27,302 nucleotides of DNA from a virus, in the IMG/VR virus record IMGVR_UViG_3300035698_003188, positions 1-27,302 of that record, one strand, 5' to 3'. The notes beneath the pieces were generated by a model. The model made no database searches, had not been told where the DNA came from, and was given only the letters and a program-made list of their open reading frames with translations. Shown here piece by piece: positions 2,606 through 21,186 of this stretch. Positions within the stretch are counted from its first letter, which is position 1; every line of letters begins with the position of its first letter. Made by a program: the position numbers and the translations under genes.

Positions 2606-5600
2606 ATGGCTAATACACTACAAAGCCCAGGAGTTAAGGTTAATGAAATTGATAAATCCTTGGGTATTAATTTAATTGGTAGCGGTGGTATTGGTATTGC
2701 CGTGAAATTAAATAAGGGACAAATCGGAGTACCATTGAACATCGTTAGTGAAGATGATTTAATTGGAAAGGGTGGTTTTCCTATTACAAACTTCAACCTT
2801 ATGGGTTGGCATTCAGTAAGCAATATTTTAAGATATGCCGAGAACGTAACCGCTTCTCGTGTTGAGGGTCTAACTTATGAAGCTAAACATAACACATCTA
2901 AACAAAAGTTCCAGATACCAACAAATAATGCTCAAATAGGTGTTTGTATGAGTGGTAATGGTGTTACATTTAATTTTGATTCTGAGCTTCAAGATATGCT
3001 TAAGAATAGAGAAGTATTTAAGACAGCAAACGAACAGAATACTTTTGATATTTTAAATCCAGATTTGGGTGTAGATATTGACGATGTTGATGGTGCTATG
3101 CTTATTGATAATGATGATAATTTAGAAGAATATGTTAAGAGCAATTCTTTTAATACTAAAGCAAAAAGCTTGAAGTATTTACCAAAACTTGGTTTTAAAA
3201 CAGTTACTAAAGATAATTATGTTCCTGAATTAGAAGCTGGTCAAGTATATAACCATAATGGTAAAATAGTTGAAATTGGTAATAATGTTTACGATAATCA
3301 TATTTTATTAGAAATTACTAATGGAACTAAAAAAGCTGGTACAGGTACATTTTTACTTAATGCCGATGGTGTTACAATAGATGGTACTGGTACAAGTTTC
3401 TTAACTGAGTTAAAACCTGGTTCTGTTTTTATTGCGACATCTTATGGTGCTTTAGTTACAAATGCAATAGCTGGTGCTGTTCTAACAAGAGATAGTGGTG
3501 ATTATAAAAAAGTTTTAACTGTTGTCGATGTAAGTGGTGTTGTTTCAGAGGGTGATAAAATTGTTGTTGAAGGTGTAGAAAGAATAATTTATTCGGTTAC
3601 TGGAACATATATGTTATTAACTGTTGACGCTCCAGCGTGGAGTGGTGTAGTATATAATGGCTGGGGTTATAAAACATTAACAACGGTTACAGATAAAACA
3701 GTTGTATCTATAACAGATGATGTTACTATGATTATAGCAACTGGTTCTACTATTTCACCAACATATGAATCTACTTTTACATATGAATTAGAAGATTCTA
3801 CTTCATTAGACGATGGTATTGATGCTACAGTTGAGACTATATATAGAGACGAAACAGATACAACAAATAAAACAATAATTGGTTTAAATGCTAATTTCCA
3901 CACTCTCTTAAGAGTTGGTTCAAAAATTGTTGTTGATTTTGGTGGAGCTGATGTACAAGACGTATATGTTGCTTCTATTCCAACAACTGGGATAAATAAG
4001 GTAATACTAACAGAGGCTTTTGATACTTTACCTATTGATAGTGCTGATGCAAAACCTTTTAAATACGCTAATTTTTATTTCAACACTGATTGTGCAACTG
4101 ATGGTAGAATGGTTTATACTGAAAATGGTATTGGTGAAATAGTTTCATCTGATGAATTATCTTCACCAACATCAACCACTTTAAGATATATTGTTAAGAT
4201 TATTAGTGGAACTTTTAGTAATGGTGAGCAATGTGCTCTTGCTAAACTTAATGATGATGAATGGAATTATTTTTCTAATCCAATATCAAGAAAAACAGTA
4301 GCATCAAGAGAGAGTAATATTTATTTAGTTAAATATGAAGATGCTCCATCACCATATGCATTAGACTTGAATAGTGGCGATGTTATTTATTTTAATCAAA
4401 CTGGTTCTGGTGTTTATACAGCTAAAGCAACCGTTCTAATGGCATCTGATGAAGCCACAGGTGATGTAAGTACATTATTAATAGAAATAGAATCTGATGT
4501 ATTAGGTGAAACTATAAATATTGATGATAAATTTACAAATACTATAACTGAATATGACCCAGAAGACCAAGCAACACTTAAATTCATACACGGATACGAA
4601 GATGTTGTTATCTATGAGATAGAAGACATGACTGGTGATATGGTAATGGTAAATGAAGAAATTGTTGGTTTAACAGCAACACTTAAAAACAGATATACTT
4701 ATACATATGCATACGATACACCAACAACAGATAAACAAAGTTATGTTGTTGAAGATACTGTAACTGGAAATAACGTAGCAAGTACAGAATTCATGAGAGT
4801 TTTTGCTGTGTCCCCAGGTGCTTGGATAAATGATGCAGATGTTACTGTTGCTGTTTGTGATATGGGCCATTATAAAGCAAATGATACTGTTGATGGTTCA
4901 ACAAAATTTAGCTCACTCTTTGAGTTTGCTCCTGATACTAGCGATAACACACTTTTTTGTGTTGTTGTAATTAGAGATGACCTAGTTGTTGAAAAGTATG
5001 TTGTTTCAACAGACCCAACATCAAAAGATAGTCAGAATGCTAGTCAATATGTACCAGATGTTATTAACAAGAAATCATCTTATATTAGAATGATTCTTAA
5101 TACAAGTGTTTTCACACCTAATGTTGCTGGTGGTTATGATATTCATTTTAACACAATGACTGTAACAGACCTTAATGGTGGTTATTCTAGTAAACTAATT
5201 GAAGTTTATAGAAATGCTTATTATAATGATAGTTCTACTCTTACAGAAGAGATAGAGAATGGATATGTTTCAAGTTCAGATATTTTTGATGCTTACGAGA
5301 TTTTCGAAAACGTTGATGATATTGCTCTTGCTTATCTTGTTGATGGTGAATGGGCTGGAAATGCAGTAGTTGCTAACAAGCTTATTGAGATTTGTGAATC
5401 TAGAGGTGATAGTGTAGCTATATTAGGGCCAGACGTTAACGACATCGTTGGATATAGAGATACTGATGCTATTACTACCAATATGCTTAATTACATCAAT
5501 GACAACAGTTTACTTGGTGGAAATAGATATAACCAGTTTGGTGGTTTCTTTGCTAACTGTAAACAAGTTTATGATGTATATAATGAAACTTATGTTTGGT

Positions 5601-6169
5601 TACCAATATCTGTAGATGTTGTTGGACTTAATTATAACGTAGATAGTTTTTTTGAAGTTTGGTATGCAGTTGCTGGTATTAACCGCGGTGTTATAAGAAA
5701 CATTGTTAAACTAGGTTGGAATCCAACTAGAACACAAAGAGATATATTGTATCCTAATAGAATTAACCCTGTAGTTTACTTTAAGGGTGAAGGTACATAT
5801 GTTTATGGTGTAAGAACACTTTGTTCTATTAAATCAGATTTAGCTGATATGTATAATCGTAAGACTCTTAATCATATCTCTAAGAACCTTTCAAAGTTCA
5901 TGAGACAAGTTCTTTTTGAATTCAATGATGGTATTACTAGAGGTCAAGTTGTTAATAATATTGAGCCTTTCTTAAGAAATATAACAGCTAAACGTGGACT
6001 TATTGATTATAAGATTGTGTGTGATGAGACAAATAATCCAGCAACTGTTGTTGAACAAAACAAGCTAGTTTGTACTATTTATTTGAAGATGGCTCATGTT
6101 ATTGAGACAATTGAACTTAATTTTGTTATTACAAAAGCGTCCGTTTCATTTGATGAAGCTACGTTATAA
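2606..6169 (+). CDS. Tail sheath protein, gp18-like, strongly enlarged
   Basis: The 1187-aa product is the contractile tail sheath subunit. The N-terminus (LQSPGVKVNEID) matches the opening of T4 gp18. The last 250 residues follow gp18 closely: the YNxVNxW-like segment (YDVYNETYVWLP), AGINRGVIRN, the QRDxLYxxxINPV element, the ITRGQ segment, an FRNITAKRG-like stretch and the VCDETNNPATV element near the end. T4 gp18 is 659 aa. The extra 500 or so residues lie between the conserved N-terminal arm and the C-terminal core, rich in Thr, Val, Asp and Gly, like stacked beta domains that would project from the tail surface. It has a perfect ribosome binding site and late promoter, and a terminator follows. 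gp19 (tail tube), its usual neighbour, is absent. Confidence 0.95.
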   Translation: MANTLQSPGVKVNEIDKSLGINLIGSGGIGIAVKLNKGQIGVPLNIVSEDDLIGKGGFPITNFNLMGWHSVSNILRYAENVTASRVEGLTYEAKHNTSKQKFQIPTNNAQIGVCMSGNGVTFNFDSELQDMLKNREVFKTANEQNTFDILNPDLGVDIDDVDGAMLIDNDDNLEEYVKSNSFNTKAKSLKYLPKLGFKTVTKDNYVPELEAGQVYNHNGKIVEIGNNVYDNHILLEITNGTKKAGTGTFLLNADGVTIDGTGTSFLTELKPGSVFIATSYGALVTNAIAGAVLTRDSGDYKKVLTVVDVSGVVSEGDKIVVEGVERIIYSVTGTYMLLTVDAPAWSGVVYNGWGYKTLTTVTDKTVVSITDDVTMIIATGSTISPTYESTFTYELEDSTSLDDGIDATVETIYRDETDTTNKTIIGLNANFHTLLRVGSKIVVDFGGADVQDVYVASIPTTGINKVILTEAFDTLPIDSADAKPFKYANFYFNTDCATDGRMVYTENGIGEIVSSDELSSPTSTTLRYIVKIISGTFSNGEQCALAKLNDDEWNYFSNPISRKTVASRESNIYLVKYEDAPSPYALDLNSGDVIYFNQTGSGVYTAKATVLMASDEATGDVSTLLIEIESDVLGETINIDDKFTNTITEYDPEDQATLKFIHGYEDVVIYEIEDMTGDMVMVNEEIVGLTATLKNRYTYTYAYDTPTTDKQSYVVEDTVTGNNVASTEFMRVFAVSPGAWINDADVTVAVCDMGHYKANDTVDGSTKFSSLFEFAPDTSDNTLFCVVVIRDDLVVEKYVVSTDPTSKDSQNASQYVPDVINKKSSYIRMILNTSVFTPNVAGGYDIHFNTMTVTDLNGGYSSKLIEVYRNAYYNDSSTLTEEIENGYVSSSDIFDAYEIFENVDDIALAYLVDGEWAGNAVVANKLIEICESRGDSVAILGPDVNDIVGYRDTDAITTNMLNYINDNSLLGGNRYNQFGGFFANCKQVYDVYNETYVWLPISVDVVGLNYNVDSFFEVWYAVAGINRGVIRNIVKLGWNPTRTQRDILYPNRINPVVYFKGEGTYVYGVRTLCSIKSDLADMYNRKTLNHISKNLSKFMRQVLFEFNDGITRGQVVNNIEPFLRNITAKRGLIDYKIVCDETNNPATVVEQNKLVCTIYLKMAHVIETIELNFVITKASVSFDEATL

Positions 6170-6191: not shown

Positions 6192-6218
6192 GAAGCCCCT
6201 TTTTGGGGCTTCTTTTTT
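6192..6218 (+). terminator. Rho-independent terminator after tail sheath
   Basis: A perfect eight-base stem (GAAGCCCC, 6192-6199, with GGGGCTTC, 6205-6212), a five-T loop and a T-run at 6213-6218. The stem is strikingly GC-rich for this genome. It insulates the sheath gene from the endonuclease gene. Confidence 0.93.
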
Positions 6219-6223
6219 ATTAT

Positions 6224-6252
6224 TTGATTTTTATTAAAAAATATGATATAAT
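6224..6252 (+). promoter_or_regulatory. Extended -10 promoter for homing endonuclease 1
   Basis: TTGATT (6224-6229), 17 bases, then TATAAT (6247-6252) preceded by TGA, giving the extended form TGATATAAT. The same TATGATATAAT block occurs before the second endonuclease gene (19336-19345). Confidence 0.6.
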
Positions 6253-6289
6253 ATATTTGTTGTATTATTAATTGACGTATGATATTTAT

Positions 6290-8299
6290 ATGAAAAAAAG
6301 AATTGAAGAAAAATTAAAGAAGATACAAGGTAAAAATAATATAAAATTATGGTTAGATAATTTTTTAGATATAGAATTAGAGTACATTCAAAATGTTGTA
6401 AAACATTTAAATATTTATAAATATAAAAACTTTAGTGAAATACGGGCATGTTTTTTAAATAATATATCTATTCAACATTATTGTCCTGTGTGTAAAAAGA
6501 AAAGCATATACGATAGACACGCTAATAATGTATATAGATTGTTTTGTTCGAGGGAGTGTAAATTTTCAAAGAAAGGACAAGAGATAGAAAAAAATAAAAT
6601 AAAAAAAACTTGTTTAGAGCGATATGGTGTTGAGAATCCATCACAATTAGAAAAAATAAAAAAACAAAAAATACAAACATGTTTAAAAAATAATGGTGTT
6701 GAACACCCATCGCAATCTAAAGAAGTTCAAGAAAAAATAAAAAAGAGTGTTAAAGAACATTATGGTGTTGAACACATATCTCAATCTGAGGAAATAAAAG
6801 AACAAAAAATAGAAACATGTAAAGAAAAATATGGTGCTGGGCATCATATGCAAAATAAAGATATTATTGATAAAAAAAATAAAACAAATTTAGAGCAATA
6901 TGGTGTTGAGAATCCAATGCAGAATGATTCTGTTAAAGAAAATGTTAAAAAAACTAACCTTGAAAAATATGATGTAGAATATTATGTTTTATCTAGTGAT
7001 TTTCAAGATAAATCAGGGGCAACTTGTTTAAAAAATTATGGAGTAAAAAATGCTTCACAATCAGAAGAAATAAAAGAACAAAAAATAGAAACTTGTTTAG
7101 AAAATTATGGAGTTAAAAATCCAACACAATCATCTGAAATTCAAAAAATAATTAAATCAAATAATTTAAAAAAATATGGTGTAACAAGTCCATCACAGTT
7201 AAAATGGGTTCAAAATAAAGTTATAGATAGTAGAAGAAGTAATTATTGGAATACTTTCGTATTAATGATGAAGCAAAAAAGATTAGAACCATTGTTTAAT
7301 AAAGATGATTATATTGGTTATAGAGTTGGTGATGTTATTTTGTTTAAATGTACTCGTTGTCAAAAAACAATAAAGTATAAGATAACAAAAGAAAAGAGTA
7401 TTGAGGTTAAAAATATTATATGTTATAATCATAAGTATGGTTCATTAGCCGAATTAGAGTTAAAAGAGTGGTTATTGAGTATTAATCCAAATATAAATAT
7501 TGAAATGAATAAAAGATTTTTTCATAATGGTAAACAATATGAATGTGATTTATATTTACCAGATTATAATTTTGGTATTGAATATCATGGCTTATACTGG
7601 CATTCTGATATACATAAAGATAAGAAATATCATAAAGACAAATATTTGTATTTTAAAGAATTAGGAATAGAGTTAATACAAGTGTTTGAATCTGAGTGGA
7701 TAAACAAACAAGAAATAATAAAGTCTATTATAACGTCCAAACTTGGTCTTATAACACAAAAGTATTATGGAAGGGGTCTTACTATTAGAGAGGTTAAAAA
7801 CAACGATTATATGCAATTCTGTGAGCTAAATCATATACAAGGATATTGCGTGGCTAAAGTTCGTTTAGGTTTATATAATGATAATGAATTAGTTCAAATT
7901 ATGTCTTTTTCTAAACCCAGGTATAATAAGAATTATGATTGGGAAAATATTAGAACATGTAGTAAAATAAATACGATAGTTGTTGGTGGAATGTCGAAGA
8001 TTTTAAAATATTTTAACCAAAATTATGGTGGTTCTATTATTTCTTATGTAGATGTTAGATTATTTTCTGGGGGTGGTTATATTAAAAATGGTTTTATTAT
8101 TAATAAACATACTAATCCCAATTATTATTATTTTAAGAGGGGTGCTATTATATTAGAAACTAGAAATAAATATCAAAAACATAAGTTAGAGAAAATTTTT
8201 AGTAATTTTGACTCAAATATGACTGAATATGAGAACATGTTAATGAATAATTATATAAGAATATATGACGCTGGTAATTTAGTTTTAACATATAATTAG
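6290..8299 (+). CDS. Free-standing homing endonuclease 1 (Vsr-like nuclease with nine YGV repeats)
   Basis: A 669-aa protein. Order of parts: an N-terminal zinc finger (CPVC at 65-68, FCSREC near 85-90); nine repeats of about 20-29 residues centred on YGVENPSQ-like motifs (about 106-306); a second Cys/His cluster (CTRC, then CYNH); a nuclease domain at about 385-470; and a conserved C-terminal domain. The nuclease carries Asp420 in CDLYLPDY, then GIEYHGLYWHSD with Glu431, His433 and His438, the arrangement of Vsr repair nucleases and EDxHD homing endonucleases. An upstream in-frame TTG (6272) is possible, but ATG 6290 aligns better with the paralogue. No strong ribosome binding site is seen. 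It stands alone between tail sheath and neck genes and is probably a selfish mobile gene. Confidence 0.85.
   Translation: MKKRIEEKLKKIQGKNNIKLWLDNFLDIELEYIQNVVKHLNIYKYKNFSEIRACFLNNISIQHYCPVCKKKSIYDRHANNVYRLFCSRECKFSKKGQEIEKNKIKKTCLERYGVENPSQLEKIKKQKIQTCLKNNGVEHPSQSKEVQEKIKKSVKEHYGVEHISQSEEIKEQKIETCKEKYGAGHHMQNKDIIDKKNKTNLEQYGVENPMQNDSVKENVKKTNLEKYDVEYYVLSSDFQDKSGATCLKNYGVKNASQSEEIKEQKIETCLENYGVKNPTQSSEIQKIIKSNNLKKYGVTSPSQLKWVQNKVIDSRRSNYWNTFVLMMKQKRLEPLFNKDDYIGYRVGDVILFKCTRCQKTIKYKITKEKSIEVKNIICYNHKYGSLAELELKEWLLSINPNINIEMNKRFFHNGKQYECDLYLPDYNFGIEYHGLYWHSDIHKDKKYHKDKYLYFKELGIELIQVFESEWINKQEIIKSIITSKLGLITQKYYGRGLTIREVKNNDYMQFCELNHIQGYCVAKVRLGLYNDNELVQIMSFSKPRYNKNYDWENIRTCSKINTIVVGGMSKILKYFNQNYGGSIISYVDVRLFSGGGYIKNGFIINKHTNPNYYYFKRGAIILETRNKYQKHKLEKIFSNFDSNMTEYENMLMNNYIRIYDAGNLVLTYN
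6605..7208 (+). repeat. Coding tandem repeats: nine YGV-type modules
   Basis: Nine modules keyed on YGVENPSQ, NGVEHPSQ, YGVEHISQ, YGAGHHMQ, YGVENPMQ, YDVEYYVL, YGVKNASQ, YGVKNPTQ and YGVTSPSQ, each followed by a lysine-rich helix. The fourth and sixth are degenerate. They are probably DNA-binding modules. Confidence 0.8.
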
Positions 8300-19311: not shown

Positions 19312-19337
19312 ATAAATTAATATTTTTGTTAATTTAT
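19312..19337. repeat. Inverted repeat overlapping the endonuclease 2 promoter
   Basis: Nine-base arms ATAAATTAA (19312-19320) and TTAATTTAT (19329-19337) with an eight-base loop. It covers the position of the -35 and ends at the TG of the extended -10. It could be a weak terminator for the upstream gene or an operator. Confidence 0.6.
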
Positions 19338-19345
19338 GATATAAT
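19336..19345 (+). promoter_or_regulatory. Extended -10 promoter for homing endonuclease 2
   Basis: TGA followed by TATAAT (19340-19345), identical over the TATGATATAAT block to that of endonuclease 1. The -35 position (TTAATA) is poor. Confidence 0.55.
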
Positions 19346-19383: not shown

Positions 19384-21186
19384 ATGACAAAAAATAAACC
19401 AGACCAAAATATCATTAAAAAGCTAAATAATATTAGTACTAATAAAATAATACAATGGAAGGAAAAATTTACCAGTTATGAATTAAACAATATTAATTTA
19501 ATAGTTGCACATTTAAACATTTTTGATTATAGTGATTTTCTTGAAATAAGATATTGTTATAAAAATAATATAAATGATTTTATTTATTGTCCTGTTTGTG
19601 GTAATATTTGTTATTATAATAAAAGTAAAAGAAAATATAATATATTTTGCTCTATTGAATGTAGAAAAAGCAAACAAGGAAAGAATATAATTAAAGAAAA
19701 AATAAGTAACACAATATTAGAAAAATATGGTGTCAAAAATGCGTCTCAGGTCGAGTTATTTAAAGAAAAAAGAACTAATACAATATTAGAAAAATATGGT
19801 GTTGAAAATGCGTTTCAATCAGGTGAGATTAAAGAAAAAATAAGTAACACAATATTAAAAAAATATGGTGTTGAAAATATTTCACAATCAGAAAAAATAA
19901 AAAATAAAAAATATACTACAAGTTATAAAAATTATGGTAAAAAATGTTATTTAGAAACGCACGAATGTATAAAAAATAGAGCAATTTTCTACTTAGATAA
20001 ATATAATGTAATGTATTATACACAAACGGTGGAATGTCAACAGAAAATTAAAGAAACTTGTAATAAAAAATATGGAACATCATCTTATACACAAACAGAC
20101 GAGTGCAAAAAGAAACAAGAAAAAACAAGAAAAATAAATTATTGGCCAAGTTTTTTAACACTTCTTAAAGAACAACACATAGAACCTTGTTTTACTATTA
20201 ACGACTACTTAGAATATGATTATGATAAACAAAATAAAATATATAAATGTTTACTATGTAATAAAAAATTTAATAATGCTCATTTGAAAGTACAATCAAT
20301 TCATTGTCCTTATCATATATATAGGTCTCTTGGTGAACGTGAAATTGAGAGTTTCTTATTACAAGAAAAATCTTCATTAAAAATAGAAACAAATAAAAAA
20401 TTTCATTATAATGGTAAATGTTTTGAGTGTGATATATATTTACCAGATTATAATTTAGGGATTGAATATCATGGATTATACTGGCATTCAGATATACATA
20501 AAAATAAAGAATATCATAAAGATAAATATATTTTTTTTAAAAATCAAAATATACGGGTTATTCAAGTATTTGAGAATGAATGGGTATATAAACAAAATTT
20601 AGTTAAATCAATAATAAAACTTAATATAAATTTAATAAAAGAAAAATATTACGCCCGTAATTGTGTTATTAAAGAGTTAAGCAATACCGAGTATAAACAA
20701 TTTTGTGAAATAAATCATTTACAAGGATATGGTATAGCTAAAATTCGTTTGGGTTTATATAATAAAAATGGTGACCTGGTTCAACTTATGAGTTTCAGTA
20801 AATCAAGATTTAATAAAAATTATGACTGGGAAAATATTAGAACATGTTCTAAAAAGAATATTATTGTTGTTGGTGGGTTTTCTAAATTATTAAAATATTT
20901 TAAAAATAATTATAATGGTTCTATTATTTCTTATGTTGATGTTCGATATTTTTCTGGTAATGGTTATTTAAATAATGGTTTTAAACAAATAAATCATTCA
21001 ACGCCAAATTATTTTTATTTTAAAAAAAATAGTATTATATTAGAATCCCGTAATAAATATCAAAAACATAAATTAAAAGATATATTACAATCGTTTGATG
21101 AAAATTTAACAGAGTATGAAAATATGCTTATTAATAATTATATTAGAATATTTGATGGTGGTAATTTAGTTTTAACATATAATTAA
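19384..21186 (+). CDS. Free-standing homing endonuclease 2 (Vsr-like nuclease with six YGV repeats)
   Basis: A 600-aa paralogue of the endonuclease at 6290-8299. N-terminal zinc finger (CPVC at 69-72, FCSIEC near 89-93); six repeats at about 109-245 (YGVKNASQ, YGVENAFQ, YGVENISQ, YGKKCYLE, YNVMYYTQ, YGTSSYTQ), against nine in the other copy; a Cys/His cluster (CLLC, then CPYH); a nuclease domain with Asp350 (CDIYLPDY), Glu361, His363 and His368 (GIEYHGLYWHSD); and the same C-terminal domain ending in GNLVLTYN. The start ATG has only a weak ribosome binding site. Its stop overlaps the stop of the convergent gp14-like gene by four bases. Likely a mobile gene cutting a nearby target. Confidence 0.85.
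   Translation: MTKNKPDQNIIKKLNNISTNKIIQWKEKFTSYELNNINLIVAHLNIFDYSDFLEIRYCYKNNINDFIYCPVCGNICYYNKSKRKYNIFCSIECRKSKQGKNIIKEKISNTILEKYGVKNASQVELFKEKRTNTILEKYGVENAFQSGEIKEKISNTILKKYGVENISQSEKIKNKKYTTSYKNYGKKCYLETHECIKNRAIFYLDKYNVMYYTQTVECQQKIKETCNKKYGTSSYTQTDECKKKQEKTRKINYWPSFLTLLKEQHIEPCFTINDYLEYDYDKQNKIYKCLLCNKKFNNAHLKVQSIHCPYHIYRSLGEREIESFLLQEKSSLKIETNKKFHYNGKCFECDIYLPDYNLGIEYHGLYWHSDIHKNKEYHKDKYIFFKNQNIRVIQVFENEWVYKQNLVKSIIKLNINLIKEKYYARNCVIKELSNTEYKQFCEINHLQGYGIAKIRLGLYNKNGDLVQLMSFSKSRFNKNYDWENIRTCSKKNIIVVGGFSKLLKYFKNNYNGSIISYVDVRYFSGNGYLNNGFKQINHSTPNYFYFKKNSIILESRNKYQKHKLKDILQSFDENLTEYENMLINNYIRIFDGGNLVLTYN
19690..19857 (+). repeat. 30-bp direct repeat inside endonuclease 2 modules
   Basis: Two identical 30-base copies at 19690-19719 and 19828-19857, 138 bases apart, encode the same helix in the first and third YGV modules; a diverged copy lies between. 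This indicates recent module duplication or conversion. Confidence 0.8.

What the first reader, a model, noticed from the sequence alone, without database searches (positions are those of the whole stretch)
6290..8299. Two paralogous Vsr-like homing endonucleases with different numbers of modular repeats (nine and six)
Both proteins share zinc finger, YGV-repeat array, second Cys/His cluster, EDxHD/Vsr-type nuclease and C-terminal domain, but carry nine and six repeats. The repeats in copy 2 include a 30-base identical pair, so the array is evolving by duplication. If each module reads a few bases, repeat number and sequence could set target length and specificity, a modular DNA-recognition scheme. 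I know of no demonstrated code for these repeats.
Basis: partly seen in the sequence, partly recalled or inferred. Interest (0 to 1): 0.75.

Follow-up and report, generated by a model that had tools for sequence, protein, structure and literature searches.

The report
Phage cutting enzymes with swappable targeting arrays
This virus of bacteria carries two related selfish DNA-cutting enzymes whose rear halves are much alike but whose front halves carry different numbers of a 23-residue repeat, and relatives show the repeats being swapped, lost and attached to other cutters, as expected of an aiming device whose reading rule is unknown.

Summary
Copy 1 (6272/6290-8299, 675 aa) has nine 23-aa units and copy 2 (19384-21186, 600 aa; outside the given coordinates) has six, with a 30-bp identical pair two periods apart. 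Both are free-standing, Hef-like homing endonucleases: zinc finger, DUF7487 array, second Cys/His cluster, EDxHD nuclease (profile hit to I-Bth0305I; fold Z 12.4). The unnamed C-terminal domain is a GNAT fold close to phage Mu Mom. Across relatives the unit is almost always exactly 23 aa (one 15-residue helix plus a turn), with 0-14 units, and shows no Foldseek match in the PDB. The array is best read as the target-recognition module. It is joined to EDxHD, TnsA-like PD-(D/E)XK, other REase-like and HNH nucleases. Paralogues in one genome keep 74-87% effector identity while their arrays look unrelated. Same-site genes from related phages are ~90-97% identical except for swapped or deleted array blocks. 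No unit-to-base code is shown: no TALE-like hypervariable pair, no mapped target, no evidence that repeat number sets target length. Modular repeats in phage homing endonucleases (T5orf172 type) and Mom-nuclease fusions were already published. This is a new variant of a known kind.

The parts
6192..6212 (+). intrinsic terminator of the tail sheath gene, just upstream of copy 1
   Evidence: stem of 8 pairs plus T run
6224..6252 (+). own promoter of copy 1, extended -10 (TTGATT-17-TATAAT with TG)
   Evidence: the TATGATAT block is also seen upstream of copy 2 and of both genes in relative G006. Consensus match only.
6272..8299 (+). homing endonuclease copy 1, 675 aa (TTG 6272; ATG alternative at 6290)
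6482..6559 (+). copy 1 zinc finger C71 C74 C92 C96
   Evidence: conserved in 46-48 of 50 homologues
6599..7219 (+). copy 1 array, nine 23-aa units (unit 6 degenerate)
   Evidence: AF2 helix plus turn per unit
7349..7432 (+). copy 1 second Cys/His cluster C360 C363 C384 H387
7442..7750 (+). copy 1 EDxHD nuclease domain, residues 391-493
   Evidence: 3r3p E 4.8e-5 by profile; Z 12.4, 94 residues aligned
7772..8296 (+). copy 1 GNAT / Mom-like domain, residues 501-675
   Evidence: Pfam Mom matches 14 of 26 family C-terminal domains
19317..19345 (+). own promoter of copy 2 (TTAATA-17-TATAAT with TG)
   Evidence: Consensus match only.
19384..21186 (+). homing endonuclease copy 2, 600 aa
19588..19662 (+). 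copy 2 zinc finger C69 C72 C89 C93
19690..19719 (+). 30-bp repeat, first member
19828..19857 (+). 30-bp repeat, second member
19702..20115 (+). copy 2 array, six 23-aa units (units 1-3 close, 4-6 divergent)
20248..20316 (+). copy 2 second Cys/His cluster C289 C292 C308 H311
20326..20634 (+). copy 2 EDxHD nuclease domain
   Evidence: alignment to copy 1
20656..21183 (+). copy 2 GNAT / Mom-like domain
   Evidence: 71% identical to copy 1

Best explanation
Both genes are free-standing homing endonucleases of the Hef/EDxHD kind built in two halves. The N-terminal half (helical domain, zinc finger and a rigid array of 23-residue, one-helix units) finds the target. The C-terminal half (zinc ribbon, EDxHD nuclease, Mom-like GNAT domain) acts on it. 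New targets arise when array blocks duplicate, are deleted or are exchanged by recombination while the effector half is kept, so one lineage can colonise many sites in a phage genome. Shown here: architecture, predicted fold, periodicity, portability between nuclease types, array swaps and contraction, lineage expansion, presence/absence at sites in relatives. Inferred: that units contact DNA, that they set specificity, and that these two proteins cut DNA.
For: (1) Nuclease: 3r3p (I-Bth0305I) by profile and fold, catalytic residues intact. (2) Arrays with 832 of about 950 successive unit spacings exactly 23 aa; AF2 pLDDT 94 with identical units. (3) Portability: array plus TnsA-like PD-(D/E)XK, MTES_1575/DUF559 REase, HNH in L282 (PHROG 374, 6e-69), PD-(D/E)XK by motif plus Mom in L326. 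(4) Paralogues form one clade per genome (G002 12 copies, W02 9; the window pair with G006). In G002 the effector is 74-87% identical while arrays are mostly at background; the window pair has effector 66%, array at the 53rd percentile of unrelated arrays. (5) Same-site genes: A221 vs maane 90.5% DNA over nt 1-599 and 91.0% over the effector, but third-position identity 0.20-0.39 in the distal array. F379 vs WX1 likewise. L340 vs L341: effector nearly identical, 103 aa of array missing. (6) Within-array unit DNA identity >=0.75 in 6.0% of pairs against 0.4% between proteins. (7) Presence/absence: gene between sheath and tube in A221, maane and Dickeya phages, absent in Gloob and P46FS4; relative G006 has a copy after its terminase gene that the window lacks. 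(8) Hef-type members include F-LimVIII (PMC3296691), and U5 Hef targets nrdB (PMC2988022).
Against: No DNA contact, target or cleavage was measured. The N-terminal region diverges as much as the array (0.36 vs background 0.30), so array divergence alone is not unique. Two swaps occurred at an unchanged insertion site, so array and insertion site are not tightly coupled. In recently duplicated units pN/pS is 0.46 overall, with no clear positive selection. 35 of 176 relatives with this effector have no recognisable unit, so the array is not obligatory.
Confidence: 0.7

Rival explanations
1. Not mainly homing: a single-chain restriction-modification-like weapon. The Mom-like domain marks the phage's own DNA and the nuclease cuts unmarked DNA of the host or of rival phages, aimed or limited by the array.
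For: C-terminal GNAT fold with Mu Mom among the top matches; Pfam Mom in 14 of 26 family domains, best 1.8e-8; L326 joins array, nuclease and a classical Mom domain; the GNAT domain is the most conserved region (0.80); Iyer et al. 2021 predicted this for jumbo-phage Mom-REase fusions (PMC7824862).
Against: The window's own domain does not hit Pfam Mom on its own and profile-profile comparison with a Mom subset was weak (P 0.11); the position matched to Mom S124 by eye is S in only 22 of 26. Multi-copy, site-specific spread and occupied/empty alleles fit homing better. The two readings are compatible.
Confidence: 0.3
2. The array is a DNA-contacting spacer or ruler (non-specific backbone binding, as in loosely tethered HE linkers); specificity lies in the zinc fingers and nuclease half. 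Repeat number changes are nearly neutral.
For: Conserved lysines at unit positions 2, 21 and 23; great freedom in unit number, 0-14; purifying selection on the core and only relaxed selection elsewhere.
Against: Strict 23-aa register and high-confidence regular fold; whole-block swaps confined to array plus linker; the array travels with unrelated nucleases.
Confidence: 0.25
3. TALE-like code: each unit reads a fixed number of base pairs, so nine and six units give longer and shorter targets.
For: Strict period, regular predicted solenoid, block duplications; positions 1 and 15 are the most variable and change most after duplication.
Against: No hypervariable pair in a constant frame: eight positions are variable and most others only moderately conserved; no target known; a degenerate unit 6 sits inside copy 1.
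Confidence: 0.25
4. The array is a protein-protein or RNA-binding scaffold, not a DNA reader.
For: The only Foldseek PDB neighbours are mostly TPR-type solenoids at E of 2.8 or worse, which is not significant.
Against: The array is found next to zinc fingers and nucleases; viral fold matches are endonuclease-like and zinc-ribbon proteins.
Confidence: 0.07

Closest known systems
Hef-type free-standing phage homing endonucleases (U5 Hef; F-LimVIII of LIMEstone; Campylobacter phage Hef)
   Same: Same protein family by alignment (F-LimVIII and Campylobacter hits), free-standing between late genes, also next to the tail sheath gene
   Different: Published accounts found here do not describe the array, its swaps or the GNAT domain; the targets of the window copies are unknown
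I-Bth0305I, EDxHD homing endonuclease
   Same: Nuclease domain: profile E 4.8e-5, fold Z 12.4
   Different: I-Bth0305I is smaller and intron-encoded; no 23-aa array or GNAT domain is described for it (own knowledge)
T5orf172 homing endonucleases with repeated zinc-finger modules (Barth et al. 2023, PMC10448857)
   Same: Tandem modules in phage HEs, intragenic recombination, proposed rapid retargeting
   Different: Different nuclease and different, separately folded modules; here a strict 23-aa one-helix solenoid
Mom-REase fusions of jumbo phages (Iyer et al. 2021, PMC7824862)
   Same: Nuclease fused to a Mom-family GNAT
   Different: Proposed as restriction-modification; the array and homing behaviour are not treated in the passages read
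TALE / BurrH (BuD) helical repeat DNA readers
   Same: Works like: tandem helical units, possible modular reading
   Different: 23 aa and one helix per unit, no RVD-like pair, no Foldseek match to such structures

Membership tests
EDxHD (I-Bth0305I-like) homing endonucleases | EDxHD catalytic domain homologous to I-Bth0305I | tested here: met
   D426, E437, H444, H454 invariant in 50 of 50
EDxHD (I-Bth0305I-like) homing endonucleases | site-specific cleavage of a long target | not testable with these tools
   no biochemistry possible
Homing endonucleases (free-standing) | presence/absence at a site between otherwise similar genomes | tested here: met
   for relatives A221/maane/Dickeya vs Gloob/P46FS4; for the window group the post-terminase site is occupied in G006 and empty in the window
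Homing endonucleases (free-standing) | promotes its own transfer in mixed infection | not testable with these tools
   needs a mixed-infection experiment
Vsr (Pfam Vsr) | match to the Vsr family model | tested here: not met
   not among Pfam hits up to E 10; related at the level of fold only (own knowledge)
DUF7487 (PF24308) | match over the curated cut-off | tested here: met
   228.9 and 83.3 bits, cut-off 27
NUMOD DNA-binding modules | match to a NUMOD model | tested here: not met
   no NUMOD among Pfam hits up to E 10
Mom family GNAT | sequence match to Pfam Mom | tested here: inconclusive
   14 of 26 family domains match, best 1.8e-8; window copy 1 not individually; fold match 8bv8 Z 13.0, tied with other GNATs
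Mom family GNAT | modifies adenine in DNA | not testable with these tools
   the S575 and D594 positions matched to Mom by eye are not fully conserved
TALE-like coded repeats | hypervariable residue pair in a near-constant unit | tested here: not met
   entropy spread over positions 1, 3, 13-15, 17-19, 22

The most novel reading that the evidence does not exclude
A portable, recombining 23-residue helical solenoid is a new class of modular DNA-reading repeat with its own recognition rule, used by phages to aim many unrelated nucleases; in this family it aims a combined cut-and-mark (EDxHD plus Mom-like) effector.
Probability: 0.25. Interest if true: 0.9.

Novelty: new variant of a known kind. 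Interest (0 to 1): 0.66.

Why it matters
If the array reads DNA unit by unit, it would be a compact (23 aa) modular recognition system shaped by phage competition and already joined in nature to several nuclease types. The swap pairs (A221/maane, WX1/F379, L340/L341) and 12-paralogue genomes are ready-made natural experiments for finding the rule. The GNAT domain raises the further testable idea that some homing endonucleases protect their own DNA.

Tried and rejected
A block duplication of four units in copy 1, suggested by two exact pairs at offset 276, was not supported when unit order was permuted (P 0.997). Positive selection on variable positions: not supported overall, pN/pS 0.46 with only positions 1, 15 and 22 near or above 1. 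NUMOD identity of the repeats: no hit. Solved structural relatives of the array: none by sequence; no significant fold match by Foldseek, and none of 49 re-aligned chains reached Z 2, which does not prove a new fold. Profile-profile link of the C-terminal domain to one Mom subset was weak; the Pfam Mom model was better. Close relatives of the window phage to give an empty site for copy 1: none found by sheath patterns; relatives G006, G007 and G001 are too diverged for base-exact junctions. No literature on DUF7487; the U5 Hef paper is not held. Vsr patch-repair function and intron encoding were set aside: the genes are free-standing.

Full report
What is there. The window holds two paralogous genes, 6272-8299 and 19384-21186. 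Their proteins align almost end to end at 47% identity. Each has a helical N-terminus, a CxxC...CxxxC zinc finger, a tandem array, a second Cys/His cluster, an EDxHD nuclease and a C-terminal domain. The unit is exactly 23 residues: nine copies in the first protein, six in the second. The 30-bp identical pair in copy 2 is real and lies two periods apart.

Identity of the parts. PHROG and Pfam call the proteins homing endonuclease and DUF7487. A profile of the C-terminal part hits I-Bth0305I. In the AlphaFold2 model of copy 1, residues 391-493 match that structure at Z 12.4. Residues 501-675 form a GNAT fold. Phage Mu Mom is third in Foldseek and has the longest alignment among the top VIA-align rows, 144 residues, although its Z ties with many GNATs. 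Fourteen of 26 family members match the Pfam Mom model on their own, best 1.8e-8. Iyer et al. 2021 had already noted Mom domains fused to REase-fold nucleases in jumbo phages and read them as restriction-modification.

The array. From 1112 distinct units, 832 of about 950 spacings are exactly 23 residues. Y9, G10 and T4 are nearly fixed; positions 1, 3, 13-15, 17-19 and 22 vary. An array-only model has pLDDT 94 with a 15-residue helix and a short turn in every unit. No significant Foldseek match exists in the PDB. Viral predicted structures with the same array are called endonuclease-like or zinc-ribbon proteins, including in Marseillevirus and an iridovirus.

Portability. Of 187 complete array proteins, 137 carry the EDxHD domain. 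Others carry TnsA-like PD-(D/E)XK, MTES_1575/DUF559 REase or HNH (L282) nucleases, and L326 joins array, a nuclease with a PD-(D/E)XK-like motif and a classical Mom domain. A module that keeps its form while the nuclease changes is most simply a targeting module.

Change of arrays against constancy of effectors. In phage G002 twelve paralogues form one clade, in W02 nine, and the window pair belongs to one clade with two genes of relative G006. In G002 effectors are 74-87% identical while arrays mostly score within the range of unrelated arrays; the window pair has 66% effector identity and an array score at the 53rd percentile of background. The N-terminal region diverges too. Three sets of close relatives show the process directly. 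A221 and maane, at the same site between sheath and tube, are about 90% identical at the DNA level except for the distal array, where third positions match at only 0.20-0.39; a block was replaced, not slowly mutated. Campylobacter F379 and WX1 show the same with an extra 36 residues. L340 lacks 103 residues of array present in L341 while the effectors are nearly identical. Recently duplicated units are common.

Mobility. The gene between sheath and tube is present in A221, maane, Mutine and Dickeya phages and absent from Gloob and P46FS4. Copy 1 sits downstream of the sheath gene, where family members also sit in Campylobacter and Dickeya phages and in relative G001. Copy 2 lies next to a head-closure gene, as does a homologue in relative G006; G006 also has a copy after its terminase gene where the window has none. 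Both window genes have their own promoter-like sequence.

What is not shown. No target, contact or cleavage is known for these proteins. There is no TALE-like pair of hypervariable residues and no demonstrated link between repeat number and target length. The swaps at unchanged sites show that insertion site and array are not locked together. Whether the GNAT domain modifies DNA is open: Y603 and R561 are invariant, but the residues matched by eye to Mom S124 and to its conserved aspartate are only mostly conserved.

Verdict. The proteins are members of a known group, Hef/EDxHD homing endonucleases, with a recognition module whose behaviour strongly suggests modular targeting. Modular, recombining DNA-binding repeats in phage homing endonucleases were already proposed for the T5orf172 type, so this is a new variant of a known kind.

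Noticed in passing
L326:3752-5728 (and L331-L345): Array plus a nuclease with a PD-(D/E)XK-like motif plus a classical Mom domain in one ORF: a second, separate joining of the array with Mom.
   Followed up: partly
L207-L213, L013, L014 (G002, 236 kb): One phage genome holds 12 copies of this endonuclease family, a single clade, with 1-10 units each.
   Followed up: yes
L169:3560-4909 (Tenacibaculum phage PTm5): An array protein of 450 aa in a stretch with no annotated gene, near baseplate and tail sheath genes.
   Followed up: no
L168, L225, L228, L230 (Prevotella phage Lak-A1): Lak megaphage, read with TAG as Q, carries about a dozen places with this array, several with short Vsr-like C-termini.
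   Followed up: partly
L219/L429 (G001): Four related endonuclease genes lie in a row downstream of the tail sheath gene, interleaved with the head-tail adaptor gene.
   Followed up: partly
window 2606-6169: The tail sheath protein is unusually long (1187 aa); mainly its C-terminal part matches known tail sheaths.
   Followed up: no
BFVD hits D2XAY4, W8W1R2, A0A1V0SKN3: The same array occurs in eukaryotic giant viruses (Marseillevirus, invertebrate iridescent virus 30, Klosneuvirus).
   Followed up: no
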